NCBI RefSeq assembly: GCF_000430765.1
Contig: NZ_KE387243.1
Span: forward strand, 133,225 to 197,224
Direction of reading: 5' to 3'
Origin: Peribacillus kribbensis DSM 17871
GTDB lineage: Bacteria; Bacillota; Bacilli; Bacillales; DSM-1321
DNA: 64,000 nucleotides
Within the stretch, counting starts at the first letter, position 1; every line of letters starts with the position of its first letter. The notes under the pieces are model-generated. The model was not told the origin of the DNA. It was given only the letters and a program-made list of their open reading frames with translations, and did no database searches. Shown in pieces: positions 42,791 to 56,529 of this stretch. The translations under genes and the position numbers were made by a program.

Positions 42791-43783
42791 CTACAGGGCA
42801 GCTTGAACCGCTGAAACGGTGAAGAGTGCTTCTGAATTCTTTTCGGTCATTTTATCAAGCTGTTCTTCCGTGACTCCTTTTTCCTTTAGTACAGGCAGGA
42901 TGTTGTCAAATAAGTGGAACGGATGCCAGTTCTGCATAATCTGCGCCAGCTGATCCGGCATAACTGGCGGCCGGCCAAGCCAGATATTGACGGAATCATG
43001 AGATAAGAGGATCTGATCTTCATAGCCTGCTTCCAATAAAGCCAGAAGCGTTTTAATCCGCTCCTCATCAGGCGGCGCCCCGACCATTCCCTGAATGCCA
43101 AAACGATCAAAGCCGATCCGGACGCCCATATCCATCACTTCTTTATGATAAGCTGGATTGGTATTTCCGCACATATGGCCGATGATGATTTTATCAGGAT
43201 CGGCTCCCAGCTCCAAAAGCATCTTCGCCTGTTCCACTCCCATTGTCCCTTCCTGGGTATGAGTAAGGAGGACAATGCCCGTATCCTGCTGAATCCTGGC
43301 GGCCGCTCGGAAGAACATTTTCTCATAGTCCGTAATGACATCCTTACTCGAAGCCAGTTTGATGATTCCAGGCTTGATTCCTGTACCTTCGATGCCCTCA
43401 GTGATTTCCGCTCTGAACATTTCATAAATATCCTGTTCTGCGGTTCCGAGTGCCTGCCTGAATTTGAAGTAGGGAGTAGCACCCTCTCCTTCATAATAAT
43501 ATCCTGTAGCGCAAATGATCTGGAGTCCAGTCGCCTGGGAAATCCGCTTTAAAAATAAGGGATTGCGTCCGCATTCATTCGGAGTAGGATCCACGACGGT
43601 TTTTACTCCAAGCTTCATCAGCTTATGGGCAATGTCAATAGAAGTCCGGAGAGCTTCTTCTTCATCAAAGCCTCCCAGGGTGCTGTCTCCCTGGAATCCT
43701 GGGTATCCAAAAATAAAGTGCTCGTGAATCAATGTTTTTCCTAAATCCTTTGCCTCGATATGGCCTGTTACGGTTTCTGCCAT
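42791..43783 (-). CDS. phosphotriesterase-family hydrolase, probable lactonase
   Basis: The 330-residue TIM-barrel protein has every metal ligand of the PTE/PLL family: H20 and H22 (HEH), the carboxylated Lys K142 in GIIKLASS, H175 in LLTHTQEG, H203 in IIGHMCG and D263 in SHDSV. Most bacterial members of this length are lactonases (PLL) acting on acyl-homoserine or gamma/delta-lactones. It directly abuts the acyl-CoA ligase gene (no gap), is last in the operon, and is followed by a strong terminator. A natural reading is that it opens a lactone to the hydroxy acid that the ligase activates. Confidence 0.85.
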   Translation of the reverse strand: MAETVTGHIEAKDLGKTLIHEHFIFGYPGFQGDSTLGGFDEEEALRTSIDIAHKLMKLGVKTVVDPTPNECGRNPLFLKRISQATGLQIICATGYYYEGEGATPYFKFRQALGTAEQDIYEMFRAEITEGIEGTGIKPGIIKLASSKDVITDYEKMFFRAAARIQQDTGIVLLTHTQEGTMGVEQAKMLLELGADPDKIIIGHMCGNTNPAYHKEVMDMGVRIGFDRFGIQGMVGAPPDEERIKTLLALLEAGYEDQILLSHDSVNIWLGRPPVMPDQLAQIMQNWHPFHLFDNILPVLKEKGVTEEQLDKMTEKNSEALFTVSAVQAAL

Positions 43784-45466
43784 TTATTCCACCGCCCCTA
43801 TTTTAGTTCCTTCTTCCTCCTGAAGCTTCCGCCAAAGAATTTTGCCGCTGGCTGTTGTCGGGAATGAATTCCTGAACTCAATCACCCGCGGATATTTATA
43901 AGCCGCCATTTTTTCTTTGGCCCATTCAATAATATCTTCCTCTTTCACCGTATCCGGATAATTCTCTTTTAGTATGATAAAGGCTTTAACCGTTTCTCCC
44001 CTTTTCGGATCAGGAATGCCTACAACACATGCCTGCTCAACCGCAGGGTGATGATAAAGGAAGGATTCCACTTCTGTAGGCCAAACCTTGTATCCTGAGG
44101 CATTAATCATACGCTTCACACGATCTACCATGAAATAATAGCCCTCTTCATCGAAGCGGCCTATATCGCCTGTACGGAAAAACCTTTTTCCATCCCTTTC
44201 AAAAAAGGATTGCCCGGTTTCTTCGGGCCGTTCGAAATATCCTTTAAATACCTGTGGTCCGCTGACCACGATTTCCCCGGCTACCCCTGCAGCAAGCTCT
44301 TTCATGGTGGCTGGATCGATGATGCGTGCATCGACATCAAAAGAGGGAATTCCCAGGCACTGCATTTTGGGACGGTCTGGAGGGTTGAAATGCGTATGAG
44401 AAATGGTTTCTGAAAGCCCGTAGCCCTCCACATATCTAAGGCCGGTTTTCTCCAGCAGCTTTTCCCCGACTGCCTGCGGAAGAGCCGCACCTCCTCCTGC
44501 AATGCTCGAAAGCGATGAAATGTTGTAGCTATCGAGGTTCGGATTGGCAAGAAAATCAATGACCATGGTACTGATATTCACCCAGTGCGTGCACCTTTTG
44601 GTTTCCATCAAAGATGCCGCTGTATTCCGGTCCCATCTCGTCATCATTACCATGGATGAACCGGCTAATATAGGCGCATGCATACTGTGCAGCATGCCGG
44701 TTACATGGAATAAAGGGAGCGATGTAAGATGAACGGAATCAGAGGTTGAATTCATCCAATGAACAGCACCTATGGCGTTGGCCTGGACCGTCCTGTTCGT
44801 ATGGATGCAGCCCTTTGGAAGGCCCGTTGTGCCAGATGTATAGGGAAGGACCGCGATATCATCACATTCCCCTTCAAAAGGGCCGGGAGAAAGGTCTGCC
44901 TCCAAAATATCTCTCCATACATGAATTCCTTCTATCTTTTCCCCCCGATCCTGTATCATCTGTGCTTCTTTTGGCAGGGAAACCTCTGTTTTTTCCGGAA
45001 GGGTATACTCTGAATACGCGGCCACAGCCAGATCATCCAGAGACGTGTCCTTTAGCAGAGGAAAAACGGTATCCAGCAGCTCATGGCCGATGATTCCAGT
45101 CCTGATGCCGCAGTCTTTAATATAAAACTCCAATTCATTCGACGTATTCATTGGATTGATCGGGACGACAACAGCCCGTATCCGTAAGATGGCGTAAAAA
45201 GAGATCAAAAACTGGGGCGAATTCTGCATAAATAATAAAACACGGTCCCCTTGTTTAACATGAAGGATCTGTTCTAAATAGCCGGCAAGCTTCTCCGCAT
45301 CATTCAGGAGCTGTCTGTAAGTGAAATCGGCTCCGTAAAAATGAAGGGCAGATTTTTCGGGATAGCGGCGCGCGCTGACCAGCAAATTATCAAAAAGAGG
45401 TGTTTCAGGTACAGTCAGACTTTTTGTAAGCCGTTTGGGCCAATACGGATAATGCCTCGTATTCAT
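43784..45466 (-). CDS. AMP-forming acyl-CoA ligase
   Basis: The 560-residue ANL enzyme has the P-loop YTSGTTGLPKG, YGLSE, the RTGDIG hinge and the catalytic Lys in SGKILWRKL. It converts a carboxylic acid, ATP and CoA to an acyl-CoA. The start at 45466 follows AGGAGG by seven bases; upstream codons in frame lack a site. It adjoins the PTE-type lactonase. The chain length cannot be deduced, but a second ligase of the same general type sits in the upstream unit (52786), so two related acids may be activated. Confidence 0.85.
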   Translation of the reverse strand: MNTRHYPYWPKRLTKSLTVPETPLFDNLLVSARRYPEKSALHFYGADFTYRQLLNDAEKLAGYLEQILHVKQGDRVLLFMQNSPQFLISFYAILRIRAVVVPINPMNTSNELEFYIKDCGIRTGIIGHELLDTVFPLLKDTSLDDLAVAAYSEYTLPEKTEVSLPKEAQMIQDRGEKIEGIHVWRDILEADLSPGPFEGECDDIAVLPYTSGTTGLPKGCIHTNRTVQANAIGAVHWMNSTSDSVHLTSLPLFHVTGMLHSMHAPILAGSSMVMMTRWDRNTAASLMETKRCTHWVNISTMVIDFLANPNLDSYNISSLSSIAGGGAALPQAVGEKLLEKTGLRYVEGYGLSETISHTHFNPPDRPKMQCLGIPSFDVDARIIDPATMKELAAGVAGEIVVSGPQVFKGYFERPEETGQSFFERDGKRFFRTGDIGRFDEEGYYFMVDRVKRMINASGYKVWPTEVESFLYHHPAVEQACVVGIPDPKRGETVKAFIILKENYPDTVKEEDIIEWAKEKMAAYKYPRVIEFRNSFPTTASGKILWRKLQEEEGTKIGAVE

Positions 45467-45523
45467 GGTTATTCCTCCTGCAATTAAATTCAAGGTCTAA
45501 TGCATGGGGCGGAACGAAGGAAG

Positions 45524-46303
45524 TCATCTTCCTGTAAATGCAGGACGCCTCTTTTCCTTGAATGCCTGCACCCCTTCCTGATGATCCTCGGTTGCGGTCA
45601 TGAGTGTCTGGGTGATCCGTTCCTGCTCTAAAATCTCCTCAAGGCTCGAGGTAAAGGAGCGGTCGATCAGCTTCTTCATCATGGCATAGGCCCTGCCTGG
45701 ACCGCGTGCAAGCCTGGAAGCATGCTCCGTCACTTTTTCCTCAAGGCTCTCAAGCGGAAAGAGTCCATTGACAACGCCAAGCTCATACAGCCGGGTAGCA
45801 GGGATCGGCTCTCCGCTGAAGAAAAATTGTTTGGCAAGATGAGGTCCTAGTAAGCGCGGAAGAAAATAAGAGCCTCCGCCATCTGAAATCAATCCAACCT
45901 GCGAGAAGCTTAAAGCGAATTTGCTGTCTTCAGCAGCAAGAATTAAATCGCATGCAAGCGCCAGATTAAAGCCCGCTCCTGCCGCAAAGCCGTGGACAGC
46001 AGCAATTACCGGCTTTTCACAATTCCGGATAGCAAGAATGCATTCATTCAATCCGCCGATATGTTCATAGACATCTGCGGGACCGGCCGTCCCCATCGTT
46101 TTCACGTCTCCCCCTGCGCTGAATGAGCGCCCTGAGCCGGAAAGGATGACGGCCCGTACCCCAGGATTATGGCTGGCATGGTTAACCGCATCCTTCAGTC
46201 CTGTTATCATTTCCGGGCTGAAGGCATTCAGGCTTTCCGGACGGTTCAGCTTTAGGTGCAGAATACGGTCATTCAATTCTGATAGTAAGTGCTCCTGGTT
46301 CAT
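45524..46303 (-). CDS. crotonase-family isomerase/hydratase (PaaG-like)
   Basis: The 259-residue crotonase has the oxyanion segment SFSAGGDVKTM and HGFAAGAGFNLALACD. The two glutamates of classical enoyl-CoA hydratases are replaced (FN for CE, QV for PE). An Asp in LISDGGG (D141) is kept, the pattern of PaaG-type delta3-delta2 isomerases. It probably moves a double bond in an unsaturated acyl-CoA rather than hydrating it. It lies between an acyl-CoA dehydrogenase and the ligase in the nine-gene operon. Confidence 0.8.
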   Translation of the reverse strand: MNQEHLLSELNDRILHLKLNRPESLNAFSPEMITGLKDAVNHASHNPGVRAVILSGSGRSFSAGGDVKTMGTAGPADVYEHIGGLNECILAIRNCEKPVIAAVHGFAAGAGFNLALACDLILAAEDSKFALSFSQVGLISDGGGSYFLPRLLGPHLAKQFFFSGEPIPATRLYELGVVNGLFPLESLEEKVTEHASRLARGPGRAYAMMKKLIDRSFTSSLEEILEQERITQTLMTATEDHQEGVQAFKEKRRPAFTGR

Positions 46304-46339: not shown

Positions 46340-48115
46340 TTAATGAGCACCTTCATGCTCTGTGAAATAATGGTCTGCGATTTCCCTGTTCCTCTTGAAA
46401 GCGCTTCCTTCAGGTGCGAAGCGGCAACATGCCTTCATCACCAGCTTAGTGAGACCTTCTGCGTCTGGGTCAGGGGCAAGCTGCGAAATAAGGATTCTTG
46501 TATGGCGTTCTGCTTCCCACATCGCTTCATCCAGAAACGAACGGGCAAGATCCATTTTTATTTTTTCCTTCTCTTCCCCGTTTTCCTGAACAGCCTTAAG
46601 AGTCCGGTATACGGCAGATTCAGCCCCATACAGGGAAATGGCAAGATCTGCAAGCCTCATCAGTGTTTCCTGTTCCTCCATCAGCTCCGCACCATGTGCC
46701 TTTAAAGCCAGCCCGGAAGACACGATAAACAAATGGCGGATCGTATCGACCGCTTCTCTTTCTTTAAACAGCAGTCCAGAATCCTTCACACTCCTTTCCT
46801 TTAGTGAGCGGAGGGAAGCTGATACGAGCTCCTCAAGGTTCCATTCTCCCTTCTGCACTCTTCGGTAAAAGAGGGTTGGAATCAAAAGGCGGTTGATTTC
46901 ATTTGTTCCTTCAAAAATGCGATTGATTCTTGAGTCCCTGTACATCTGTTCAATGTTATATTCCTTTATAAATCCCGCACCACCATGCAGCTGGAGAGCT
47001 TCGTCTACCGAATAATCGAGGGTTTCGGAGCCGAGCACCTTGCAGATGGCACATTCAAGCGCATATTCACTGAGGGAGGTTGCGGCAGCTTTTGAATCGA
47101 AAGAATCATACAGGCCCCCCAGGACATCTTCTAGAAGGCCGGCTGTCCGGTACTGCACCGATTCAGAAGCATAAATAACAGATGCCATCCTGGCGACCTT
47201 TTCTTTGGTGGCCGGGAAATCTGCTATTCTTTTATTGAATTGCCTTCGTTCCTGGGTAAACTGAAGCACCTTCTTCAAGCTGTATTTTGCAGCTCCCATG
47301 CACGCAGAACCCAGATTGAAGCGTCCAAGATTCAGCACATTCAGGGCGATCACATGTCCTCTGCCGATTTCCCCAAGCAGGTTTTCAACAGGCACCAGGC
47401 AGTCTTCAAGTATGACAGAACGTGTAGATGAGCCTTTAATTCCCATTTTCTTTTCCTCCGGACCAAGTGAAAGTCCCGGGAAATCCTTTTCGACTATAAA
47501 TGCGGTGAATTTGGTGCCATCCACCTTGGCATAGACGATGAACGTATCCGAAAATACAGCATTGGTAATATAAATTTTCGTACCATTCAGGATATAATGG
47601 GTGCCGCTGCCATTAAGGGTGGCTGTTGTCTGTGAGGCAAGGGCGTCTGAACCTGCATTGGGCTCTGTCAGGCAGTAGGCGCCAAGGAATTCGCCGCTTG
47701 CCATTTTCGGAAGATATTTCTCCTTTTGTTCAGGAGTGCCGAAATAGGTAATCGGGAGTGTAGCGATGCAGGTATGATTGGAATGGGCCACTCCATATCC
47801 GCTTGACGGGCCGATCATTTCCCCGACAATCGCTTTTGTGATCTTATCAAGGCCAAGACCGCCGTACTCCTGCGGAATACTGTGGGCCAATAGACCAAGC
47901 TCTCCCGCTTTCCTCAGCTTTTTGACGATCAAATCAAAATCCTGATTTTCGATCTCTTCTTTAATAGGGATGATTTCTTTTTCTAAAAACTGTCTGGCGG
48001 TTTTCCCGATCATTTTATGCTCGGAAGTGAAGTCTTCCGGGGTAAATAGATCATCCAGTGAAGGCTTTGAGACTAGAAAGGCTGCTCCGCCGATTCCTGA
48101 TTTGATTTGCTGCAT
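46340..48115 (-). CDS. long-chain-type acyl-CoA dehydrogenase
   Basis: The 591-residue flavoprotein has the standard ACAD core (YCLTEPNAGSDA, the flavin/substrate loop, ERRQFNKRIADFP, and a catalytic Glu in the RINRIFEGTNEINR segment) plus a ~200-residue helical C-terminal extension. This is the VLCAD/FadE size class of bacilli. It makes 2-enoyl-CoA and hands electrons to ETF, whose genes are not in this window. It follows the ComB-like gene with a 19-base gap. Confidence 0.9.
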   Translation of the reverse strand: MQQIKSGIGGAAFLVSKPSLDDLFTPEDFTSEHKMIGKTARQFLEKEIIPIKEEIENQDFDLIVKKLRKAGELGLLAHSIPQEYGGLGLDKITKAIVGEMIGPSSGYGVAHSNHTCIATLPITYFGTPEQKEKYLPKMASGEFLGAYCLTEPNAGSDALASQTTATLNGSGTHYILNGTKIYITNAVFSDTFIVYAKVDGTKFTAFIVEKDFPGLSLGPEEKKMGIKGSSTRSVILEDCLVPVENLLGEIGRGHVIALNVLNLGRFNLGSACMGAAKYSLKKVLQFTQERRQFNKRIADFPATKEKVARMASVIYASESVQYRTAGLLEDVLGGLYDSFDSKAAATSLSEYALECAICKVLGSETLDYSVDEALQLHGGAGFIKEYNIEQMYRDSRINRIFEGTNEINRLLIPTLFYRRVQKGEWNLEELVSASLRSLKERSVKDSGLLFKEREAVDTIRHLFIVSSGLALKAHGAELMEEQETLMRLADLAISLYGAESAVYRTLKAVQENGEEKEKIKMDLARSFLDEAMWEAERHTRILISQLAPDPDAEGLTKLVMKACCRFAPEGSAFKRNREIADHYFTEHEGAH

Positions 48116-48134
48116 TCTTCATCCTCCTTATGTT

Positions 48135-48881
48135 TTATGGTGAAGCAGAGGGCTTTCGTCTAATGATTCTTCCATCCTGCAGGACCGGTACTGTGTCAAG
48201 GGCTCCTGAGTACGAGGCAAGTTCTAAATCAGCCGAGAGGCCATGTGTCTTCAGCATGGTTCCTACACGGGACCTTTGCAGAATCTCCAGGGGCTTTTCT
48301 TTATTCCCCCTATAGAAAAGGCATGCCGCCTGTGCAGCATCGCTTACTTCAGTGTTTTCAGGCGAGAGAGCGGCGAGACAGTCAATGAAATGACCTGCCC
48401 CATAAAAGTCCTCCAGTGATAATTCACCGGAATTTCCCGAACAGATGAGAACAAGGGTAGTATCCGGAGAGCATTCCTGGAACACTTCACGGGCTGCTGC
48501 GGGATTGTTCAGCAGGCAGGAAATAAAGACTTTTTCTGCCGCCGCCGCCTTCTTTAATGCCACCGTTCCATTGGTCGTTGAAAGGACCAGCGTTTTTCCC
48601 TTCACCGAATCCCTGAGCATGAACGGGCTTGGGTAATGGAAGCCGCTGATGGGTTTGGCATCATATTCTCCCGCCAGGACCTTCTCTTCTGGGAGGAAGG
48701 CGGCAATTCTAAGCGCTTCCTCCCTGTTCTCGGCAGGAATGACCGCTAAAGCCCCGTCACCCAGGGCTGCAGTGATGGTCGTAGTGGCCAGGAGAACATC
48801 AAATACAACCGCGATCTTCCTGCCACTCTTGAGCTTTTCTTCCTGCACCTCTTCTTTTGTCATGAGCAGGTGGATTTTCAT
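48135..48881 (-). CDS. ComB-family phosphatase (2-phosphosulfolactate phosphatase-like)
   Basis: The 248-residue protein has the ComB fold signatures: KIAVVFDVLLATTTITAAL near 22, GEYDAKPISGFHYPSP, and a long LVLSTTNGTVALKKA segment, with GAGHFIDCL later. Characterised relatives remove phosphate from 2-phospho-3-sulfolactate in coenzyme M synthesis, which a Bacillus does not make. Here it is locked between an APH-type kinase and an acyl-CoA dehydrogenase (gaps 21 and 19 bases), so a phosphorylated intermediate of that pathway is a more likely substrate. GGGAGGGG precedes the ATG. Confidence 0.75.
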   Translation of the reverse strand: MKIHLLMTKEEVQEEKLKSGRKIAVVFDVLLATTTITAALGDGALAVIPAENREEALRIAAFLPEEKVLAGEYDAKPISGFHYPSPFMLRDSVKGKTLVLSTTNGTVALKKAAAAEKVFISCLLNNPAAAREVFQECSPDTTLVLICSGNSGELSLEDFYGAGHFIDCLAALSPENTEVSDAAQAACLFYRGNKEKPLEILQRSRVGTMLKTHGLSADLELASYSGALDTVPVLQDGRIIRRKPSASP

Positions 48882-48902: not shown

Positions 48903-49967
48903 TCAGCCTGCGATCTCCGCTGCATGGGCAATCAGACTCTTTACAAATGTATCAAAATGGGCAAAACGCGGATCCTGTGTCTGGCCTTTCTTGTATCTGT
49001 AAAATATCTGCTGAGCGATGACCGCGAGCTTAAAATAAGCAAAGGTCAGGTAAAAATTCATGTGGGTGATATCTCTGCCGCTTTTTTTGGCATATTCCTC
49101 CATGAATTGCTGCCGGGTCATAAAGCCTTCCATGACCGTGACAGGCGGTTTTCCAAGACCGGTTTTAAGGAGCGGCGGATCATGCTCCTCTGTCCAGTAG
49201 CTCATGGCTGCCCCCAGGTCGGCCAGCGGATCTCCAACCGTGGACATTTCCCAATCAAATAATCCGGTCATTTCCGTCAGGCTTTCATTGAACATGGCGT
49301 TATTCAATTTAAAATCATAATGGATCAGGGACGATTCGGAAGCTGCAGGGATATGGCCGACAAGCCAGGTTGTAAGTTTTTCTACTTCCTGGATATTTTC
49401 TGTCTGCGCTTTCTGATACCGGGAAACCCAGCCATGCACCTGGCGTTCCATGAATCCTTCCGGCCTGCTTATGTCTAAAAGCCGGGTTTTTTGATAGTCA
49501 AGATCATGAAGCTCCACGAGACGGTCCACCATCAGGCTTGAGATCCGCCTGCAAAGCTTGCGGTCCACCTTTATTCCCTCCGGAAAAGCAGAGTCGATGA
49601 CGACTCCCTGTTTGCGCTCCATTAAAAGAAAAGGACTTCCTGTGATTTTTGGATTTTCGCTGAATAAAATGGGCACTGGTGCGGGGCCGAATAACGGATG
49701 CACCTCGTGTAAGATAAAGAATTCCCGCTGCATATCATGGGCCTTGGGGGCAACCGGTCCGAGAGGAGGGCGTCTCAGCACGGCCTGCCAATTCCCAATC
49801 GACAGCTCATAAGTCAAATTGGAATGGCCGGCCGAAAATTGCCGTATCTCAAGACTCCCATCTGGGAGACCAGGGACATGCGAATGAAGGAACTCCTCCA
49901 GGAGGGGGATGTTCAGTTCCTCTCCCTTCCGGACCAATATGGTCTGGCTCAATGCCTGATCCGGCAT
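48903..49967 (-). CDS. APH-family kinase (LvaA/ACAD10-11 kinase-like)
   Basis: The 354-residue protein has an aminoglycoside-phosphotransferase fold: a Brenner-like catalytic motif HYDFKLNNAMF and the metal-binding DWEMSTVGDPLADLG. SAGHSNLTYEL and a following RRPPLGPVAPKAHDMQREF form the N-lobe seen in the kinase domain of ACAD10/11 and in Pseudomonas LvaA. Those kinases phosphorylate the 4-hydroxyl of 4-hydroxyacyl-CoAs, a step towards enoyl-CoA. An ACAD11-type dehydrogenase is encoded at 55245. AAAGGAGG lies upstream of the ATG. Confidence 0.85.
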   Translation of the reverse strand: MPDQALSQTILVRKGEELNIPLLEEFLHSHVPGLPDGSLEIRQFSAGHSNLTYELSIGNWQAVLRRPPLGPVAPKAHDMQREFFILHEVHPLFGPAPVPILFSENPKITGSPFLLMERKQGVVIDSAFPEGIKVDRKLCRRISSLMVDRLVELHDLDYQKTRLLDISRPEGFMERQVHGWVSRYQKAQTENIQEVEKLTTWLVGHIPAASESSLIHYDFKLNNAMFNESLTEMTGLFDWEMSTVGDPLADLGAAMSYWTEEHDPPLLKTGLGKPPVTVMEGFMTRQQFMEEYAKKSGRDITHMNFYLTFAYFKLAVIAQQIFYRYKKGQTQDPRFAHFDTFVKSLIAHAAEIAG

Positions 49968-50000: not shown

Positions 50001-50402
50001 TCAAGTGATAGAGACGTTCTCCTCTAAAGCAGACTTCAGTAAAGGAGGAAGCACTTCGCTTTTTTGTGTTTCAAAATTGAAATATACGATGACCGCCATA
50101 CCTTTCGCGATCAGCTCTCCGGTCTGGGCGCAGGTGATCTCATGCTCGATTTGGAAGCTTTTCGTGCCAATTTTTGAAACATAGGTCTTGATTGATAAAA
50201 TTTGATTGAAATACCCCTGACTGACAAAATCGCATTTTGTCGAGGCGAGGATGAAGCTCCAATCCTTCACATCCATGCTGTAGCCCAGAAGTTCAAAAAA
50301 TTTAATGCGTGCTTCCTCCAGATAAATAAAATAGCTCGTATTGTTTATATGGCCCAGTGCATCTGTTTCACAGAAGCGGACCGTAACCTGTGTCTCCTGC
50401 AT
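50001..50402 (-). CDS. hotdog-fold acyl-CoA thioesterase
   Basis: The 133-residue protein is a single hotdog domain of the 4-hydroxybenzoyl-CoA thioesterase/YbgC type. The active-site stretch ETDALGHINNTSYFIYLEEA has the Asp (D14) and His-Ile-Asn-Asn of the family. It would hydrolyse an acyl-CoA and so relieve CoA trapping in the pathway. Gaps to its operon neighbours are 11 and 33 bases. Confidence 0.85.
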   Translation of the reverse strand: MQETQVTVRFCETDALGHINNTSYFIYLEEARIKFFELLGYSMDVKDWSFILASTKCDFVSQGYFNQILSIKTYVSKIGTKSFQIEHEITCAQTGELIAKGMAVIVYFNFETQKSEVLPPLLKSALEENVSIT

Positions 50403-50413: not shown

Positions 50414-51193
50414 TTATTTGTTCTGGAATACGGGTTTTCTCTTTTCAATGAAGGCCTGGACGCCTTCTTTGATATCCTCGGTCTTAAAGATATCGGTAAA
50501 CAACTGCGCTTCGAGTTCGAGGCCTTCTTGCAGGCTCCTGTCGAGCCCTTTATTTACTGCCCTTTTGATTCTGGAAAGGGACTGCAGGGAATGGCGGGCA
50601 CATCTTTCGGCCAGCCTCTTCGCATGAAGCAGTCCTTCTCCTGTGGGAACCACTTTGTTGACAAGTCCGAGGGATAAGGCAGCTTCGGCATCAACAGGGT
50701 CGCCTGTATACATCAGTTCCTTTGCCTTTGGTGCGCCGATTAATCGTGGCAGCCTCTGGGTTCCGCCGCCGCCGGGAAATAACCCGAGCTTCACTTCAGG
50801 GAGCCCGATCTGGGCATGCTGCTCGGCAATGCGCATGTCCATGGCAAGGGAGAGCTCGCATCCGCCCCCGAAAGTCATCCCGTTCAGGACGGCGATGGTC
50901 GGCTTTGGAAATTGTTCAATATAAGTCAGAACCTCGTGGGTTTCCATAACAGAACCAAGCATCTCGGGATTGTACATGAGTTCAGGGAATTCCTTGATAT
51001 CAGCGCCCGCAGCAAATGCTTTTTCCCCAGATCCTGTCACAATGACAGCCGTTGTTTCTCCATCTCCTTCAAGCTCTGTAAAGGCTTCCCTCAAGCTGAG
51101 GAAAACTGCTTTGCTGAGCACATTCAGAGGCGGGTTTTGGATGGTGATGACAGCTATATGATTGTCTTTTTCCACAGAGACAAATTGCGGCAT
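50414..51193 (-). CDS. enoyl-CoA hydratase
   Basis: The 259-residue crotonase has both catalytic glutamates of true hydratases, E113 in GGGCELSLA and E133 in LPEVKLGLFPGGGGTQRLPR, and the oxyanion segment FAAGADIKEF. It adds water to 2-enoyl-CoA to give 3-hydroxyacyl-CoA. It is separated from the 3-hydroxyacyl-CoA dehydrogenase gene by only two bases, so the two successive beta-oxidation steps are co-translated. Confidence 0.9.
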   Translation of the reverse strand: MPQFVSVEKDNHIAVITIQNPPLNVLSKAVFLSLREAFTELEGDGETTAVIVTGSGEKAFAAGADIKEFPELMYNPEMLGSVMETHEVLTYIEQFPKPTIAVLNGMTFGGGCELSLAMDMRIAEQHAQIGLPEVKLGLFPGGGGTQRLPRLIGAPKAKELMYTGDPVDAEAALSLGLVNKVVPTGEGLLHAKRLAERCARHSLQSLSRIKRAVNKGLDRSLQEGLELEAQLFTDIFKTEDIKEGVQAFIEKRKPVFQNK

Positions 51194-51195: not shown

Positions 51196-52071
51196 CTATT
51201 TCACTCCCTGTCCTTCATAGTCATACCAGCCTTTACCTGTCTTTCTTCCGAGTTCTCCTTTTTTCATCTTTTCCTCAAGGCAGGAATAAGGTTTATCTTC
51301 GGGATTTCCGGTTTCCTTATACCGCTGCTCCATGACGAAATAGCCTACATCAATACCGGAAAGATCCATGAGTTCGAATGGGCCGATCGGGTGACCCAGT
51401 GCCTTGCGGCAAATTGAATCGATATCCTTGAAATCGGCAATTCCCTGCTCGTAAAGATAGACCGCCTCCTTTTGGAGGGCACCGAGGATACGGTTTGCGA
51501 CGAAGCCGGAAACTTCCTTGTGCAGCAAAAATGCAGTGCGGTTGATTCTCCTGCAGACATCCATGGCTGCCTGGGAAGTTTCTTCAGAGGTTTTTTGGCT
51601 TTTAACAACCTCCACACAATCCATCACAAGAGGCGGGAAGAAAAAGTGCATGTTGATGAATTTATCAGGGCGGTCTGTCACATCAGCCAGCAGGCTATTG
51701 ACAATTGTTGAGCTGTTGGTAGCAAAGATGGCATGAGGAGAAGCCAGCTTATCAAGCTTAGAAAATACGTCTCTCTTAATCTCTATCTTTTCTACTACCG
51801 CCTCAATAATAAGATCCGCTCCTGCAGCCGCTTCCTCCAGACTCGCTGTAAAACGAAGCCTATGGAAGGCCTTTGCTGCTTCTTCCTCTGAAATCTTTCC
51901 TTTCTGGACCCATCTTGCCATGATGGCTTCCAGTTTTTCTTTCGCTTTAGCGAGCGCTTCGTCCTGAAGGTCCTGTATGACGGTCTCATAGCCTCCCAAT
52001 GCGCAGAGCATCGCGATCTGATGTCCCATCTGGCCTGCGCCGATAACGGAAATATTCTTTATCTCTGACAT
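51196..52071 (-). CDS. 3-hydroxyacyl-CoA (3-hydroxybutyryl-CoA) dehydrogenase
   Basis: AGGAGG before the ATG at 52071 gives 291 residues; the longer open frame has no ribosome site. The Rossmann motif SVIGAGQMGHQIA, the substrate-loop NTSS-type segment ATNSSTIVNSL, and the catalytic His in INMHFFFPP are visible, with the C-terminal helical domain ending in GRKTGKGWYDY. It oxidises 3-hydroxyacyl-CoA with NAD. It is the first gene of the nine-gene operon, and an 18-bp TetR operator lies directly upstream. No thiolase follows. Confidence 0.92.
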   Translation of the reverse strand: MSEIKNISVIGAGQMGHQIAMLCALGGYETVIQDLQDEALAKAKEKLEAIMARWVQKGKISEEEAAKAFHRLRFTASLEEAAAGADLIIEAVVEKIEIKRDVFSKLDKLASPHAIFATNSSTIVNSLLADVTDRPDKFINMHFFFPPLVMDCVEVVKSQKTSEETSQAAMDVCRRINRTAFLLHKEVSGFVANRILGALQKEAVYLYEQGIADFKDIDSICRKALGHPIGPFELMDLSGIDVGYFVMEQRYKETGNPEDKPYSCLEEKMKKGELGRKTGKGWYDYEGQGVK

Positions 52072-52084
52072 TCTTCTTCCTCCT

Positions 52085-52102
52085 ATACTGACCGGTTGGT
52101 AT
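52085..52102 (-). promoter_or_regulatory. TetR operator, copy 1
   Basis: ATACTGACCGGTTGGTAT is an almost perfect dyad (consensus with copy 2: ATACTRACCRGTYGGTAT). It lies 13 bases before the start of the 3-hydroxyacyl-CoA dehydrogenase gene. Confidence 0.75.
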
Positions 52103-52150
52103 GTTTTCTTTTTGATGGGAGGGAAGAGCTGGATGGCCTCCCTCCTGCCA

Positions 52151-52711
52151 TTATTCAATTCCATGTAAGATCATATTGGTAAAGGCGGCCGCCACATCCC
52201 TCGGTTTTTCAGTGCCTTCAGGGTTGTACCATTGATAGCTCCAGTTGATAATCCCCAAAATGCCGAATGCAATGATTGGTATATTGAGCTCAGGACTGAA
52301 TTCGCCTTTTTGCACACCTTCCTTTAGCAGCCTTTCAATATTAAAGCGGAATTGATCCCTTTTTTCTGTGATCGTTTCATAATTTTCCTGATTCAGATGC
52401 CGTATTTCCCTGAAGAACACCTTGGCGCTTGCACCATGGTCCTTAATTTCAGTAATTAATAAATGAACCATTTCAAACAGCTTGTCCTTCCCGGTTTTGG
52501 AATCATCCTGCAGGATCATTTCCTGACGTTTGACGAGATCATCGATATATCCCTGATGGATATCCTTTAAAAGCTCTTCTTTACTGGGAAAATAGTAATA
52601 AAAGCTTCCTTTTGTCACACCTACAGCTTCCACAATATCCTGTATGGATGTGGTGCTGAAGCCCTTTTTCTCAAAAAGGCGGATTGCTGCAGCAGTCAAT
52701 TTATCTTTCAT
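52151..52711 (-). CDS. TetR/AcrR-family acyl-CoA pathway regulator
   Basis: The 186-residue repressor has the TetR helix-turn-helix (TTSIQDIVEAVGVTKGSFYY then YFPSKEELL) and a C-terminal TetR_C_33/FadR-like ligand region. The ATG at 52711 is preceded by GGGGATC; an earlier TTG is less likely. Its gene lies between two units that both begin with the same 18-bp palindrome, so it is the probable repressor, released by an acyl-CoA or the pathway acid. An extended -10 element (TGGTATAAT, 52747-52755) gives it its own promoter. Confidence 0.85.
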   Translation of the reverse strand: MKDKLTAAAIRLFEKKGFSTTSIQDIVEAVGVTKGSFYYYFPSKEELLKDIHQGYIDDLVKRQEMILQDDSKTGKDKLFEMVHLLITEIKDHGASAKVFFREIRHLNQENYETITEKRDQFRFNIERLLKEGVQKGEFSPELNIPIIAFGILGIINWSYQWYNPEGTEKPRDVAAAFTNMILHGIE

Positions 52712-52746
52712 TGGAGATCCCCGCAATCTATGTAAAGTCAGCTAGA

Positions 52747-52785: not shown

Positions 52786-54393
52786 TCATGGTGTGCGGAC
52801 TTCCTCGCGAAGCGCCCTTCTGAGGATTTTACCGACACTTGTTTTGGGCAGAGAATCCCTGAATTCAACCAGTGCAGGCACCTTATACGCTGCAAGGTTG
52901 ATCCGGCAGAAATTCTTGATCTCGATTTCGGTGGCTGTTTTCCCTGATTTCAGAACCAGTACGGCTTTCACTGTTTCGCCCCTGTATTCATCTGGAACGC
53001 CTATGACCACCGCTTCCTGAACAGCTGGATGTTCATACAGGACCTCCTCAATATCCCTTGGATAAATATTGTAACCGCTTGCAATGATCATATCCTTTTT
53101 CCGGTCAGCAATGGATAAATAGCCCTCTTTATCCATGCTGCCGATATCTCCTGTATACAGCCATCCATTTCGGAGGGCATGGGCCGTCTCTTCTGGCAGA
53201 TTCCAGTATCCCTTCATAACCTGAGGCCCTTTTATAATTACTTCTCCAAGTTCTCCGGGCGGAAGCTCCCGGGTGCCATCTGCGGTATCCACGATTTTGT
53301 ATTCTGTTGAAGGAAAACCGATTCCGACCGTTCCGGGCTTCCTGGAAGCAAAATTAGGATTGCAGTGTGTAGTGGGAGAAGCCTCTGAAAGGCCGTACCC
53401 CTCGAGGATCCTTGAGCCTGTTTTTCTCTCGAACTCTCTCAGCAGCTCGACAGGCATAGGGGCACTGCCCGAATTGCAGACTTCGATGCAGTCTATGCCA
53501 TATTCCTCGGCCCTGGGATGGTGAGTCAGGGCCACATACATCGTCGGGACGCCCGGGAAGAGGGTTGGCTGCTCTCTTTTAATCGTCTCGAGGACTTCCT
53601 CTATGTCGAATTTAGGCAGCAAGATCATTTCAGCTCCTATATAAATCGATAAATTCATGCATGAAGTCATGCCGAATACATGGAATAAAGGGATGACCGT
53701 CAAACAGCGTTCCTTCCCGAAATCCAGGTCATGTTTAAAGAATTCATGAGATTGCAGGACATTTGCCACGATATTGCGGTGGGTGAGCATCGCCCCTTTT
53801 GATCTGCCAGTGGTTCCGCCAGTATATTGAAGGACGGCGACGTCATGTTCGGGATCCAGTTCAGCAGCAGGCACCCCGCCTTTTCCCTGTGCCAGGAACG
53901 CTTCAAAGGAATGCTCCTTTGGATCAGCTTCGGGCTGCAGTGAGACCTGGATGATCCTCTGACATTCCGTTTCTGAGGATACCGCTTCTACCCTTGCAAG
54001 AAGGGAATCAAGGACCACGATGGTCTCTGCCCCCGAATCCTGGAGAAGAAGCTTGAGCTCCCGTTCGACGAGCATTGGATTGACCTGGGTCACGATGGCG
54101 CCTGAAGCTAAAATGCCATAATATGCGATGACAAATTGAGGACAGTTCGGGAGCATAATGGCGACTCGGTCCCCTTTGTGGACACCATTTCTTCTCAATG
54201 CCGAAGAAAAGGCAGCCACGGCCATTTTAAGCTCAGCGTACGAAATCTTCTTTCCGTAAAATGAAAGGGCGTGATGCGACGGAAATCTTTCCGCTGTTTC
54301 AAACAGAAGCTGCGGAAGGGTCTTATCAGGAATTGTCAGGTCTTTGGAGATGGAATCTGGATAATGAGCAAGCCAAGGTTTTTTCTCATTCAT
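52786..54393 (-). CDS. long-chain-type acyl-CoA ligase (FadD/LvaE-like)
   Basis: The 535-residue ANL enzyme has YTGGTTGRSKGAM, YGLSEASP, YTGDIG and the C-terminal catalytic Lys in SVGKILRRAL. GGAGGT seven bases before the ATG at 54393 fixes the start. It lies 63 bases after the SDR gene, in the unit with an ACAD11-type dehydrogenase. The same trio (ligase, SDR, ACAD) occurs in levulinate catabolism, where the ligase activates the acid first. Confidence 0.88.
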   Translation of the reverse strand: MNEKKPWLAHYPDSISKDLTIPDKTLPQLLFETAERFPSHHALSFYGKKISYAELKMAVAAFSSALRRNGVHKGDRVAIMLPNCPQFVIAYYGILASGAIVTQVNPMLVERELKLLLQDSGAETIVVLDSLLARVEAVSSETECQRIIQVSLQPEADPKEHSFEAFLAQGKGGVPAAELDPEHDVAVLQYTGGTTGRSKGAMLTHRNIVANVLQSHEFFKHDLDFGKERCLTVIPLFHVFGMTSCMNLSIYIGAEMILLPKFDIEEVLETIKREQPTLFPGVPTMYVALTHHPRAEEYGIDCIEVCNSGSAPMPVELLREFERKTGSRILEGYGLSEASPTTHCNPNFASRKPGTVGIGFPSTEYKIVDTADGTRELPPGELGEVIIKGPQVMKGYWNLPEETAHALRNGWLYTGDIGSMDKEGYLSIADRKKDMIIASGYNIYPRDIEEVLYEHPAVQEAVVIGVPDEYRGETVKAVLVLKSGKTATEIEIKNFCRINLAAYKVPALVEFRDSLPKTSVGKILRRALREEVRTP

Positions 54394-54456
54394 TCTTGAA
54401 ACCTCCAAAAGTAGGATATAAAGCGGTTTTCAAGCCATCCTTTTTAGCCTGTGCTT

Positions 54457-55230
54457 CTACATTGCATGAGTGCCTCCGTCGACAACCAGAACATTGCCGG
54501 TCACAAAGCTCGATGCTTCTGAGGCTAAAAAGAGGGCGGCTCCTTTCAGATCGTGATCACTGCCGAATCTTTTAAGAGGCGTGGTCTCTAAAATCGGATC
54601 CTTTCCGTGTTCAATGATCACTTTGGACATTTTTGTCGGGAAAAACCCTGGAGCGATGGCGTTCACATTGATGTTATAGCGCCCCCATTTTACGGCAAGG
54701 TCCTTGGTGAAGGTGATGACAGCCCCTTTGCTTGTGTTATAGCCGATCGTGTCCATCACCCTTGGGTCGACTCCTCCAAGGCCTGCAACGGAAGCGATGT
54801 TGATGATCTTTCCGGATTTCTGCTCAATCATGACTCTGCCGGCGGCCTGGCTCATCAGGAACGTGCCGGTCACATTGACATCGATCACCTTTTTCCATGC
54901 CTCAAGCGGCATTTCAGCTGCCGGGGCACCCCAGGTGGCTCCGCTGTTGTTGACCAGAATGTCGATCCTGCCAAACGTTTTAAGCGTTTCATCGATAACA
55001 TGCTGGACATCTTCCGGGTTCGAAATATCACATTTCATGGCAAGTGTCTCTGCTCCAAGCTTCTCAAGGCTTTCTGCCGTTTCCCTGCAGGCTTCCACTT
55101 TTCTTGAACAGAGCACTAAATTGGCCCCTGCCTCCGCCAGTGCTTCAGCGATCTGGGCGCCAAGCCCGCGGCCGCCACCGGTGACAATGGCGGTCTTTCC
55201 CTTTAAATTAAATAATTCCATAACCTCCAT
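54457..55230 (-). CDS. short-chain dehydrogenase/reductase
   Basis: From the ATG at 55230 (GAAGGAAG upstream) the protein has 257 residues. It has the NAD(P) motif TGGGRGLG, NNSGA, the catalytic Ser in NIASVAG and Tyr/Lys in YNTSKGA. It resembles gluconate 5-dehydrogenase/FabG-type SDRs. In a 4-hydroxy-acid pathway it could interconvert the 4-keto and 4-hydroxy forms, as LvaD does for levulinyl-CoA; that role is inferred from its neighbours. It is 14 bases downstream of the ACAD gene. Confidence 0.85.
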   Translation of the reverse strand: MEVMELFNLKGKTAIVTGGGRGLGAQIAEALAEAGANLVLCSRKVEACRETAESLEKLGAETLAMKCDISNPEDVQHVIDETLKTFGRIDILVNNSGATWGAPAAEMPLEAWKKVIDVNVTGTFLMSQAAGRVMIEQKSGKIINIASVAGLGGVDPRVMDTIGYNTSKGAVITFTKDLAVKWGRYNINVNAIAPGFFPTKMSKVIIEHGKDPILETTPLKRFGSDHDLKGAALFLASEASSFVTGNVLVVDGGTHAM

Positions 55231-55244
55231 GATTCTTCCTTCTT

Positions 55245-56477
55245 TCAATGGATTTTTTCTGCTTCGATGCTGCGGTATTTTTTCAGCTCTAACTTGGCAA
55301 TCTGTGCTTTATGAACTTCATCCGGCCCGTCCGCAAGCCTTAGAGTCCTGGCATTGGCCCACTGCGCCGCCATGGTGAAATCATTGGATACTCCCGCACC
55401 GCCGAATGCCTGGATCGCACGGTCAATCACTTTAAGCGCCATATTTGGGGCCACCACCTTAATCATGGCAATTTCAGCCTTGGCCTCTTTATTTCCGACC
55501 GTATCCATCATATAAGCAGCTTTAAGCGTGAGGAGCCTTGCCTGCTCAATCTCAATTCTCGCTTCTGCGATCCATTCCTGGATCACTCCTTGCTGGGCAA
55601 GACTTTTGCCGAAGGCTGTCCGGTTTTGTACACGCTTACATAAATCCTCAAGCGCTCTTTCTGCTGCCCCGATTAACCTCATACAATGGTGGATCCTTCC
55701 CGGTCCAAGCCTTCCCTGGGCGATTGCAAAGCCTTTTCCTTCTCCCCAGATCATATTTTCTGCAGGAACTCTGACATTCTCGAAGGTGATTTCCGCGTGT
55801 CCATGAGGGGCGTGATCATAACCGAAAACAGAGAGCATCCTTTCAATTTTGACTCCCGGCGTATCAAGAGGAACGAGAATCATGGATTGCTGGCTGTGAC
55901 GCTCGGCATCGGGATCGGTCTTGCCCATAACAATGGCGATTTCACACCGCGGATCACCGGCTCCGGAAGACCACCATTTCCGTCCGTTTATAATATAGGA
56001 ATCTCCCTCTCTTACAATGCTTGCGCTAATATTCGTGGCATCGCTTGAAGCCGTTTCCGGCTCTGTCATGGAGAAGCAGGACCGGATGCGTCCGGCCAGC
56101 AGCGGCTTTAGGTAGCGTTCTTTCTGATCTTCTGTCCCATATCTTACGAGCACCTCCATGTTGCCGGTATCAGGTGCGCCGCAATTGAAAACTTCCGGAC
56201 CGATGAGGGACCGGCCCATAATCTCACACAGGGGGGCATATTCCTGATTTGTGAGTCCGGCGCCATACTCACTTTCAGGAAGGAAAAGATTCCAAAGGCC
56301 CTGTGCTTTCGCTTTATCCTTCAATTCCTCCATGATCGGCGGGACAGAGCTCCATCTGGAAGGCTGCTCATTCAGCTGCTTTTCATACCGCTCTTCATTC
56401 GGATAGACATTCTCTTCCATAAACTCTGTTAGTTTTTGCTGCAATTCTTTAACTTTACCAGAATACGAAAAATCCAT
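55245..56477 (-). CDS. ACAD10/11-type acyl-CoA dehydrogenase (LvaC-like)
   Basis: The 410-residue flavoprotein belongs to a recognisable ACAD branch: [74 protein letters not shown] and [11 protein letters not shown]. Enzymes of this branch (human ACAD11, Pseudomonas LvaC) act with an APH-type kinase to turn 4-hydroxyacyl-CoA, via the 4-phospho form, into an enoyl-CoA. The matching kinase is encoded at 48903 in the second unit. It is the first gene of its transcript, and a TATAAT promoter plus TetR operator lie immediately upstream. Confidence 0.9.
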
Positions 56478-56495
56478 TTGATCCTCTCCTTTTCC

Positions 56496-56529
56496 ATACT
56501 AACCAGTCGGTATGTTTAGTTGTATTATA
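56496..56529 (-). promoter_or_regulatory. promoter and TetR operator, copy 2
   Basis: On the minus strand TATAAT (56529-56524) is followed within about 10 bases by the dyad at 56513-56496, which reads ATACTAACCAGTCGGTAT on the plus strand. The operator covers the expected start of transcription, the usual place for repression. Confidence 0.7.

What the first reader, a model, noticed from the sequence alone, without database searches (positions are those of the whole stretch)
42791..56529. A two-operon island that looks like a gamma-lactone / 4-hydroxy-acid degradation system
Seen: an APH-type kinase (48903), an ACAD10/11-type dehydrogenase (55245), an SDR, two acyl-CoA ligases, hydratase, isomerase, 3-hydroxyacyl-CoA dehydrogenase, thioesterase and, at the operon end, a PTE-type hydrolase with all six metal ligands. 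Known: in Pseudomonas lva and mammalian ACAD10/11 the kinase and dehydrogenase remove a 4-hydroxyl via a 4-phosphoacyl-CoA; PTE-like proteins often hydrolyse lactones. Inferred: the lactonase opens a gamma-lactone, a ligase activates the hydroxy acid, kinase plus ACAD give enoyl-CoA, and beta-oxidation follows. No LvaB partner and no thiolase are present.
Basis: partly seen in the sequence, partly recalled or inferred. Interest (0 to 1): 0.78.

Follow-up and report, generated by a model that had tools for sequence, protein, structure and literature searches.

The report
Lactone and hydroxy-acid burning gene cluster
This is a 13-gene bacterial cluster that most likely burns 4-hydroxy fatty acids and their lactones by the same kinase-plus-dehydrogenase trick as the human proteins ACAD10 and ACAD11, and it carries a phosphatase-family gene, missed at first reading and probably misnamed in databases, that stays beside the kinase in distantly related bacteria.

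Summary
In detail: window 42791-56477 is a minus-strand run of 13 catabolic genes. The kinase (48903) and dehydrogenase (55245) belong with LvaA/LvaC and ACAD10/11: the dehydrogenase has the active-site residues reported for mouse ACAD11 (R626, R631, H634, R637, D753). The lactonase is close to Geobacillus GkaP, which hydrolyses delta- and gamma-lactones. In 199 genomes of the order, all 28 with this lactonase have the kinase (94 of 199 overall); in 15 of 28 they lie within 20 kb on one strand. In 33 of 79 named lactonase loci the acyl-CoA ligase sits directly upstream, as here. The lactone reading is supported, not proven.

81 of 82 genomes with it have the kinase; 69 of 86 copies lie within 200 bp of it. 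It differs from true ComB, and the genome has another ComB-family gene next to comA. In part of the other neighbourhoods the kinase adjoins a histidine phosphatase or a HAD protein; ACAD10 has a HAD domain fused. Best reading: a 4-hydroxyacyl-CoA branch of beta-oxidation with lactone salvage and a phosphatase-type partner that limits 4-phosphoacyl-CoA. New variant of a known kind.

The parts
55245..56477 (-). ACAD: acyl-CoA dehydrogenase of the LvaC/ACAD10-11 type (P0016); 4-phosphoacyl-CoA to 2-enoyl-CoA (inferred)
   Evidence: PDB matches 4hr3 5.9e-149, ACAD11 2wbi 7.4e-142; R256, R261, H264, R267, D383 = mouse ACAD11 R626, R631, H634, R637, D753
54457..55248 (-). SDR oxidoreductase (P0015), possibly a LvaD-like 4-oxoacyl-CoA reductase (inferred)
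   Evidence: an SDR ORF adjoins the ACAD gene in 26 of 31 cases in L032-L067
52786..54408 (-). acyl-CoA ligase 1 (ACS1, P0014)
   Evidence: AMP-binding PF00501 8.5e-95
52151..52726 (-). TetR-family regulator (P0013); best NCBIfam model is FadR of Bacillus, below its cut-off
51196..52164 (-). 3-hydroxyacyl-CoA dehydrogenase (P0012; an internal start near residue 32 is likely)
   Evidence: PF02737 1.4e-58
50414..51193 (-). enoyl-CoA hydratase family (ECHa, P0011)
   Evidence: PF00378 4.3e-67
50001..50402 (-). 4HBT-family thioesterase (P0010)
   Evidence: PF13279 1.6e-21
48903..49967 (-). KIN: APH-fold kinase of the LvaA/ACAD10-11 type (P0009); 4-hydroxyacyl-CoA kinase (inferred)
   Evidence: PDB 9o56 4.9e-149, ACAD11 8v3v 5.9e-46; HYDFKLNN and DWE motifs
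48135..48881 (-).
   Evidence: 81 of 82 genomes with it have KIN, 69 of 86 copies within 200 bp of KIN; upstream of KIN in 11 of 11 kinases of this type in the phylum sample around G229
46340..48115 (-). conventional FadE-type acyl-CoA dehydrogenase (P0007)
   Evidence: NF058590 775 bits, cut-off 600; lacks the HCMR motif, has FEGTNE at the place of the catalytic acid
45524..46303 (-). enoyl-CoA hydratase/isomerase family (ECHb, P0006)
   Evidence: PF00378 2.1e-63
43784..45493 (-). acyl-CoA ligase 2 (ACS2, P0005), abuts the lactonase gene
   Evidence: NF006181 863 bits, cut-off 705; 0 bp gap to PLL; directly upstream of PLL in 33 of 79 named loci
42791..43783 (-). PLL: phosphotriesterase-like lactonase of the GkaP/DR0930 type (P0004)
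   Evidence: PDB 3f4c 3.1e-149; six metal ligands H20, H22, K142, H175, H203, D263 invariant in 19 sequences, the window's own included
42750..42783 (-). terminator-like stem of 15 pairs just after the lactonase gene

Best explanation
A 4-hydroxyacyl-CoA branch of beta-oxidation with two accessory modules. Core: an acyl-CoA ligase activates a 4-hydroxy acid (or beta-oxidation of a longer acid with an even-numbered hydroxyl stops at 4-hydroxyacyl-CoA); KIN phosphorylates the 4-hydroxyl; the ACAD expels phosphate to give 2-enoyl-CoA; hydratase, 3-hydroxyacyl-CoA dehydrogenase, FadE and a thiolase encoded elsewhere finish. Module 1, lactone entry or salvage: PLL opens lactones, taken up or formed when 4-hydroxyacyl-CoA cyclises and loses CoA, and the abutting ligase ACS2 re-activates the hydroxy acid. 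Module 2, phosphate control: the ComB-family protein next to KIN removes phosphate from stalled 4-phosphoacyl-CoA or 4-phospho-acid, or otherwise holds KIN back, the job proposed for the HAD domain of ACAD10. Shown here: gene identity, family-specific residues, conserved neighbourhoods. Inferred: every reaction and substrate.
For: Kinase and ACAD; the ACAD motif R-x4-R-x2-HCMR is in 58 of 59 distinct ACAD ORFs at 60% identity or more (62 of 63 with repeats; the exception is a 265-aa fragment) and in 0 of 12 distinct ORFs under 40%. Residue roles: PMC12440821 (passages). Lactonase. Lactonase with kinase: 28 of 28 against 94 of 199 genomes, Fisher p 6e-11 without correction for kinship; 15 of 28 within 20 kb, all same strand, in 8 of 16 families. 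ACS2-PLL pair: also away from the other cluster genes in Geobacillus. Precedent: QsdA lactonase plus QsdC ligase are required for gamma-caprolactone assimilation in Rhodococcus erythropolis (PMC6476934, PMC6262395, passages). ComB-family partner; loss of residues typical of comA-linked ComB with the common core kept; a second, comA-linked ComB-family gene in the same genome. Other phosphatase-family partners beside such kinases.
Against: No activity was tested. GkaP prefers delta-lactones, which give 5-hydroxy acids that should need no kinase. 66 of 94 kinase genomes lack PLL, and 13 of 28 PLLs lie 86 kb or more from the kinase or on other contigs; 13 of 79 named PLL loci show neither ACS2 upstream nor two cluster genes. 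13 of 94 kinase genomes lack the ComB-family gene at the cut-off used, and none of these 13 has a histidine phosphatase within 10 kb of the kinase (nearest about 19 kb), so a partner is not essential to the reaction. 10 of 86 ComB-family copies have no kinase on their contig. The ComB-family gene gave no match in plasmid records, though kinases do. In the phylum sample 18 of 40 kinase neighbourhoods showed none of the three partner types, and 5 of 14 plasmid ones. The ACAD10 HAD domain showed negligible phosphatase activity (PMC11342911), so 'phosphatase' may be the wrong word. On the ComB tree the kinase-linked copies are not one clade (5 changes; 2 of 31 branch apart with an unlinked copy), 17 of 49 inner branches are open and long branches meet.
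Confidence: 0.65

Rival explanations
1. The cluster serves 4-oxo acids such as levulinate: the SDR reduces a 4-oxoacyl-CoA to 4-hydroxyacyl-CoA as LvaD does, and the lactonase is incidental.
For: An SDR ORF adjoins the ACAD gene in 26 of 31 cases in L032-L067, nearly all without a lactonase; LvaD does this in Pseudomonas (PMC6692424, passages).
Against: SDRs are a huge family and P0015 scores over the cut-off of PRK08213, 'gluconate 5-dehydrogenase' subfamily; no LvaD sequence was on hand to compare; the PLL-ACS2-kinase link is not explained.
Confidence: 0.35
2. The ComB-family protein is not a phosphatase in this setting but a structural or regulatory partner of the kinase, replacing LvaB (which binds LvaA) or acting like the ACAD10 HAD domain, which restrains the kinase.
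For: It sits next to the kinase gene, and LvaB was pulled down with LvaA (PMC6692424, passages); its side changes between the two samples but adjacency does not; the ACAD10 HAD domain restrains the kinase with negligible phosphatase activity; the bacterial HAD neighbours have D-x-G-G in place of D-x-D in 11 of 11.
Against: The residues shared by comA-linked, solved and KIN-linked ComB (D28, E72, N104, G105, N125, D158) are kept in 63 of 63 distinct KIN-linked copies, and the histidine phosphatases at the same place keep the RHG motif in 8 of 8.
Confidence: 0.37
3. The lactonase is a quorum-quenching acyl-homoserine-lactone hydrolase and the rest is general fatty-acid breakdown of the released acyl chain.
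For: QsdA of Rhodococcus, also with a FadD-type ligase, degrades such signals.
Against: The same qsd genes are needed for gamma-caprolactone assimilation; opening a homoserine lactone gives no 4-hydroxyacyl-CoA, so the tie to a 4-hydroxyacyl-CoA-type kinase (28 of 28 genomes) would be unexplained.
Confidence: 0.12
4. The natural substrates of the lactonase are delta-lactones; kinase and ACAD handle other molecules and share only the operon.
For: GkaP kcat/Km is 9.9e5 for delta-decanolactone against 7.3e4 for gamma-hexyl-gamma-butyrolactone (PMC4338136, passages).
Against: Does not explain co-occurrence of PLL with the kinase; the gamma value is still high.
Confidence: 0.2
5. The ComB-family gene makes sulfolactate or a relative and lies beside the kinase by chance.
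For: Pfam PF04029 match over cut-off.
Against: Below the cut-off of all 8 NCBIfam ComB models listed; the genome has another PF04029 gene beside comA; Arg31 and Asn84 of comA-linked and solved ComB are replaced in 63 of 63 distinct copies; adjacency in two samples from different phyla.
Confidence: 0.04

Closest known systems
[quoted passage not shown]
   Same: LvaA-type kinase, LvaC-type ACAD, SDR and acyl-CoA ligase in one operon; same proposed 4-phosphoacyl-CoA intermediate (PMC6692424 and PMC12440821, passages).
   Different: No LvaB; ComB-family gene beside the kinase; lactonase, FadE, hydratases, 3-hydroxyacyl-CoA dehydrogenase and thioesterase included; TetR instead of a sigma-54-dependent regulator.
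levulinate cluster of Pseudomonas citronellolis LA18T
   Same: LvaB missing and a phosphatase-family gene next to the lvaA homologue; the authors already suggested removal of phosphate (PMC6692424, passages).
   Different: There the gene is a histidine phosphatase, an unrelated fold (my knowledge); no lactonase in the passages read.
mammalian ACAD10 and ACAD11
   Same: Kinase and ACAD homologous, same active-site residues; ACAD10 also has a HAD domain that restrains the kinase (PMC11342911, PMC12440821, passages).
   Different: Fused in one chain; HAD instead of a ComB-family protein; no lactonase.
qsd operon of Rhodococcus erythropolis
   Same: Phosphotriesterase-like lactonase QsdA with a FadD-type ligase QsdC and a TetR repressor, used for gamma-caprolactone (PMC6476934, PMC6262395, PMC4640858, passages).
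   Different: The passages read name no kinase or LvaC-type ACAD in that operon; sequences not compared.
GkaP/GKL lactonase of Geobacillus and DR0930
   Same: Full-length match, all six metal ligands, the tyrosine and arginine of the pocket.
   Different: The passages of PMC4338136 that I saw give no genomic setting, and 'operon', 'gene cluster' and 'physiological' do not occur in its text; here it abuts a ligase gene in a 4-hydroxy-acid cluster.
ComB, 2-phosphosulfolactate phosphatase
   Same: Same Pfam family; the residues common to the groups compared are kept.
   Different: Separate from comA-linked and solved ComB on the tree (99/95 branch), no comA beside it, Arg31 and Asn84 lost.

Membership tests
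LvaA/LvaC-ACAD10/11 4-hydroxyacyl-CoA system | ACAD with R626, H634, R637 and catalytic D753 (mouse ACAD11 numbers; R631 is shared with other ACADs) | tested here: met
   R256, R261 (R631), H264, R267, D383 in P0016, constant offset 370; residue roles from PMC12440821
LvaA/LvaC-ACAD10/11 4-hydroxyacyl-CoA system | kinase homologous to the ACAD11 kinase domain with catalytic Asp | tested here: met
   8v3v 5.9e-46; D218 aligns with the Asp that is Ala in chain 8v3u
LvaA/LvaC-ACAD10/11 4-hydroxyacyl-CoA system | LvaB-like 12-kDa partner | tested here: not met
   no room in gaps of the run; the P. citronellolis cluster also lacks it, so it does not define the whole group
LvaA/LvaC-ACAD10/11 4-hydroxyacyl-CoA system | kinase and lyase activity on 4-hydroxyacyl-CoA | not testable with these tools
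   needs purified proteins
LvaA/LvaC-ACAD10/11 4-hydroxyacyl-CoA system | phylogeny with LvaA and LvaC of P. putida | not tested
   their sequences were not on hand; ACAD11 chains and plasmid homologues were compared by similarity only
phosphotriesterase-like lactonase (GkaP type) | binuclear metal site H23, H25, K145, H178, H206, D266 | tested here: met
   H20, H22, K142, H175, H203, D263, invariant in 19 sequences
phosphotriesterase-like lactonase (GkaP type) | lactone hydrolysis | not testable with these tools
   shown for GkaP in print, not for this protein
ComB (2-phosphosulfolactate phosphatase) | PF04029 family | tested here: met
   199.7 bits, cut-off 26.4; solved chain 1vr0, 'probable 2-phosphosulfolactate phosphatase', 5.5e-32
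ComB (2-phosphosulfolactate phosphatase) | NCBIfam equivalog cut-offs | tested here: not met
   all 8 models listed are below cut-off
ComB (2-phosphosulfolactate phosphatase) | comA beside it and Arg31/Asn84 of the comA-linked group | tested here: not met
   comA lies on another contig beside a second PF04029 gene; Leu31 and Pro84 here
qsd operon | PTE-like lactonase with FadD-type ligase and TetR gene | tested here: inconclusive
   the three gene types are present, PLL and ACS2 abut, but QsdA and QsdC sequences were not compared and the TetR gene is shared with the whole run

The most novel reading that the evidence does not exclude
A phosphatase-type partner is a frequent third component of 4-hydroxyacyl-CoA phosphorylation, recruited at least three times from unrelated folds (ComB-family in Bacillales and some Actinomycetota, histidine phosphatase in Deinococcus, Proteobacteria and Streptomyces, HAD in another set of kinases of the second phylum sample and fused in ACAD10), because 4-phosphoacyl-CoA or its free acid is harmful when it piles up. 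The kinase-linked ComB-family branch is then a large, misannotated group of 4-phosphoacyl(-CoA) phosphatases or kinase brakes, and GkaP-type lactonases are lactone-salvage enzymes of this pathway.
Probability: 0.42. Interest if true: 0.78.

Novelty: new variant of a known kind. Interest (0 to 1): 0.62.

Why it matters
It gives a testable native role to the much-studied Geobacillus-type lactonases, extends the ACAD10/11 chemistry to a large set of Gram-positive bacteria, flags a branch of proteins named '2-phosphosulfolactate phosphatase' as probably misnamed, and turns the unexplained HAD domain of human ACAD10 into one possible case of a wider pattern: a phosphatase-type protein kept beside the 4-hydroxyacyl-CoA kinase.

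Tried and rejected
Oleate hydratase as the source of hydroxy acids: the Pfam search matched 107 of 199 genomes, but only 2 with full-length matches; the others are short N-terminal stretches, so no test was possible. Histidine phosphatase as substitute partner in the 13 kinase genomes without the ComB-family gene: none within 10 kb. Kinase in viral contigs: no relative. PDB code 9O56 in papers: no hit. ComB-family gene on plasmids: no match at E 1e-8. A first tblastn map was replaced by an ORF-based one, because an unknown 324-327-aa gene after ECHb looked like a missed lactonase; it has no similarity to it and reads like a quinone oxidoreductase (my reading; no family search run). One search ended in a script error after printing its map; its counts were redone. 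Literature on the ComB-kinase link and on a native role of these lactonases: searches (search listings; open-licence papers only) showed none; this is not proof that none exists. Structure prediction was not run, since sequence matches to solved chains were already strong.

Rows dropped or repeated: 1 of 80 named lactonase loci (L247) had no lactonase ORF called and was left out of the 79; of 154 named relatives only the best 80 were returned; 2 of 9 comA-linked loci (L171, L174) were not picked up by the similarity cut and are not in the residue counts; 4 ComB-family copies without a kinase in the stretch (L211, L215, L237, L247) were not counted as KIN-linked; some genomes were fetched twice, so residue counts were redone on distinct sequences (65 to 63 ComB-family copies, 63 to 59 ACADs, 88 to 85 kinases); of 68 kinase matches in the second phylum sample 40 neighbourhoods were fetched, mainly the best-scoring; of 64 KIN-linked ComB-family rows 40 remained after thinning and 30 went into the tree with the window's own. 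ORF calling in G+C-rich stretches missed genes, so tblastn counts are used there.

Full report
What is there. Window 42791-56477 holds 13 genes on the minus strand in the order ACAD, SDR, ligase ACS1, TetR, 3-hydroxyacyl-CoA dehydrogenase, hydratase ECHa, thioesterase, kinase KIN, ComB-family gene, FadE, ECHb, ligase ACS2, lactonase PLL. Gaps run from -14 to 59 bp, and ACS2 and PLL abut. A 15-pair terminator-like stem follows PLL directly and another precedes kynU. The run lies between kynU (56632-57900) and kynA-kynB (42667-41181), 154 and 123 bp away. Two same-genus genomes show the same nesting (L032, L033); the other 34 kinase neighbourhoods of that map show no kyn genes. In later sets kyn genes turn up near the cluster in L133, L212 and L217, without the nesting.

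Kinase and dehydrogenase. P0016 matches 4hr3 (5.9e-149, named only 'putative acyl-CoA dehydrogenase'), ACAD11 (2wbi, 7.4e-142) and full-length ACAD11 chains; the next chains start at 1.9e-44. Its R256, R261, H264, R267 and D383 correspond at a constant offset of 370 to R626, R631, H634, R637 and D753 of mouse ACAD11, which PMC12440821 (passages) describes as phosphate-binding (R626, H634, R637), substrate-positioning and shared with other ACADs (R631) and catalytic (D753). The motif R-x4-R-x2-HCMR is in 62 of 63 ACAD ORFs at 60% identity or more from 156 fetched loci (58 of 59 distinct; the exception is a 265-aa fragment), in 1 of 3 at 40-60%, and in 0 of 15 (0 of 12 distinct) under 40%; the window's own FadE lacks it. 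P0009 matches 9o56 (4.9e-149; 'aminoglycoside phosphotransferase', organism not shown), the ACAD11 kinase domain (5.9e-46) and 3dxp (8.4e-39); an 'aminoglycoside phosphotransferase-like protein' (9fsg) follows at 2.6e-12 and a capreomycin phosphotransferase at 3.4e-4. HxD-x4-N is in 83 and DWE in 85 of 85 distinct kinase ORFs.

Lactonase. P0004 matches lactonases of Geobacillus (3f4c and others, about 1e-149) and DR0930. The six metal ligands are invariant in 19 aligned sequences, the window's own and 18 relatives, and match GkaP's list with an offset of 3 (PMC4338136, passages). That paper's Table 1 gives kcat/Km 9.9e5 for delta-decanolactone, 5.1e5 for delta-nonalactone and 7.3e4 for gamma-hexyl-gamma-butyrolactone. 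So gamma-lactones are good but not the best substrates of the nearest studied enzyme, which weakens a pure gamma-lactone reading.

Is the lactonase linked to the kinase? In a sample of 199 genomes of the order (the same handles), PLL (E up to 1e-60) is in 28, KIN (1e-60) in 94, and all 28 PLL genomes have KIN (Fisher p 6e-11, no correction for kinship). In 15 of 28 the two lie within 20 kb, all on the same strand, in 8 of 16 families; the other 13 are 86 kb or more apart (7) or on different contigs (6). In 79 named PLL loci (best 80 of 154), an ACS2 homologue at 50% identity or more lies directly upstream on the same strand in 33 (ORFs under 150 aa passed over), at least two cluster genes lie in the stretch in 52, and 13 have neither. 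On the negative side, 66 of 94 kinase genomes lack PLL: it is an optional module.

Precedent for lactonase plus ligase. In Rhodococcus erythropolis the phosphotriesterase-like lactonase QsdA and the FadD-type ligase QsdC, under a TetR repressor, are required for gamma-caprolactone assimilation (PMC6476934, PMC6262395, PMC4640858; passages). The passages seen do not say how the 4-hydroxyacyl-CoA is then broken down; the present cluster supplies a candidate route.

The missed gene. P0008 (48135-48881), 21 bp after KIN, is a ComB-family protein (PF04029 4.9e-59) but falls below the cut-offs of all 8 NCBIfam ComB models listed. In the 199 genomes it is found (E up to 1e-15) in 82; 81 of these have KIN (G158 is the exception). 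Of 86 copies 69 lie within 200 bp of KIN and 76 within 6 kb, every one on KIN's strand; for 10 no kinase lies on the same contig. 13 of 94 kinase genomes lack it; one of them (G039) keeps a short PF04029 remnant (73-codon open frame) about 55 bp from the kinase. The window's genome has a second PF04029 gene on contig C2 next to comA, so sulfolactate synthesis is probably served by another gene. In the alignment, D28, E72, N104, G105, N125 and D158 are kept in 63 of 63 distinct KIN-linked copies, 7 of 7 comA-linked and 3 of 3 solved chains, whereas Arg31 of the comA-linked and solved chains is Leu in 59, Met in 3 and Phe in 1 of 63 KIN-linked ones, and Asn84 is Pro in 63 of 63. That the conserved residues are catalytic is my inference; the ComB structure paper was not seen. 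A tree puts the 7 comA-linked and 3 solved chains behind a 99/95 branch, apart from the KIN-linked copies; the latter are not one clade (5 changes, 2 of 31 apart), kinase-unlinked copies lie among them, 17 of 49 inner branches are open, and long branches meet.

A second phylum. In 149 genomes of the phylum of G229 (the genome of L247, a record titled 'Actinobacteria bacterium'; the tool shows no ranks for this sample) the kinase (E up to 1e-40) is found in 56, 68 matches. In 40 of the 68 neighbourhoods, fetched mainly by score, a ComB-family gene lies 27-169 bp upstream of the kinase in 11 of 11 with the best-matching kinases (49-54% identity), so the order is reversed but adjacency kept. Of the other 29, 11 have a HAD-family gene 66-245 bp downstream, and 18 show none of the three partner types. 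A contig titled Rubrobacter (L257) also has ComB-family gene and kinase side by side, with ACS2-like and PLL genes near. The 11 HAD genes are the only hits with that query in the 40 stretches, and their first motif is D-x-G-G in 11 of 11, the second Asp replaced; PMC11342911 (passages) says that only the first Asp of the HAD motif is present in ACAD10. No histidine phosphatase was found in these 40 with 8 query proteins.

Plasmids. Among 16 plasmid regions that I picked from the hit lists hold the kinase. In 8 of 14 a histidine phosphatase gene follows the kinase at -8 to +15 bp with the RHG motif kept in 8 of 8, in 1 (Tsukamurella) a HAD gene lies three genes upstream, and 5 have neither. The choice was not random, so 8 of 14 is not a rate. 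No plasmid record matched P0008.

What others have said. PMC6692424 (passages) noted in 2019 that the levulinate cluster of P. citronellolis has a histidine phosphatase gene where no lvaB is found and suggested removal of phosphate. PMC11342911 (passages) found that the ACAD10 HAD domain restrains the kinase, with negligible phosphatase activity, and that 4-phospho-acids form in cells. I did not find the ComB-family case or the general pattern in print (searches; search listings of an open-licence library).

Mechanism. With sequence support: kinase and lyase of the ACAD10/11 kind; lactonase of the GkaP kind abutting a ligase; a ComB-family neighbour. Inferred: 4-hydroxyacyl-CoA to 4-phosphoacyl-CoA to 2-enoyl-CoA; lactone opening followed by re-activation; removal or limitation of phospho-intermediates. 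My knowledge, not from a call: beta-oxidation of fatty acids with an even-numbered hydroxyl stops at 4-hydroxyacyl-CoA, such thioesters can cyclise to gamma-lactones, which would make PLL-ACS2 a salvage loop, and the three phosphatase families have unrelated folds. Thiolase-family genes for the last step are in the genome (six strong matches). In L215 a branched-chain-type ABC transporter lies between the core and ACS2-PLL; genes of like size lie there in several relatives, which suggests uptake of the acid or lactone.

Verdict. The stronger new point is the phosphatase-family neighbour of the kinase. New variant of a known kind; interest 0.62.

Noticed in passing
41181-42667 and 56632-57900: The 13-gene run sits inside a split kynurenine gene set (kynU upstream, kynA-kynB downstream); same in the two same-genus genomes, not in the other 34 kinase neighbourhoods.
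   Followed up: partly
G000:C2:253707-255091 (L166): A second PF04029 gene next to comA in the same genome, the likely sulfolactate pair.
   Followed up: partly
L175-L178: A third PF04029 group in some genomes of the order, with Arg in place of Glu72 and Ser in place of Arg31, in varied neighbourhoods; function unknown.
   Followed up: no
L054 (G053): The lactonase beside the kinase cluster appears as two separate matching pieces and gave no full-length ORF, so it is probably broken in that genome.
   Followed up: no
L052 (G039:C19:8001-8159): A short ComB-family remnant (73-codon open frame) beside the kinase gene.
   Followed up: no
L215:3627-8166: Branched-chain-type ABC transporter (two permeases, two ATPases, binding protein) between the core cluster and ACS2-PLL; genes of like sizes in several relatives.
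   Followed up: partly
   Followed up: no
L282-L292: In the phylum sample around G229 the ComB-family gene lies upstream, not downstream, of the kinase; in L288 ACS2 and PLL are close by too.
   Followed up: partly
window 41000-58900: Terminator-like sites exceed shuffles (34 against 19.8, sd 4.7) while promoter-like sites do not (21 against 21.7).
   Followed up: no
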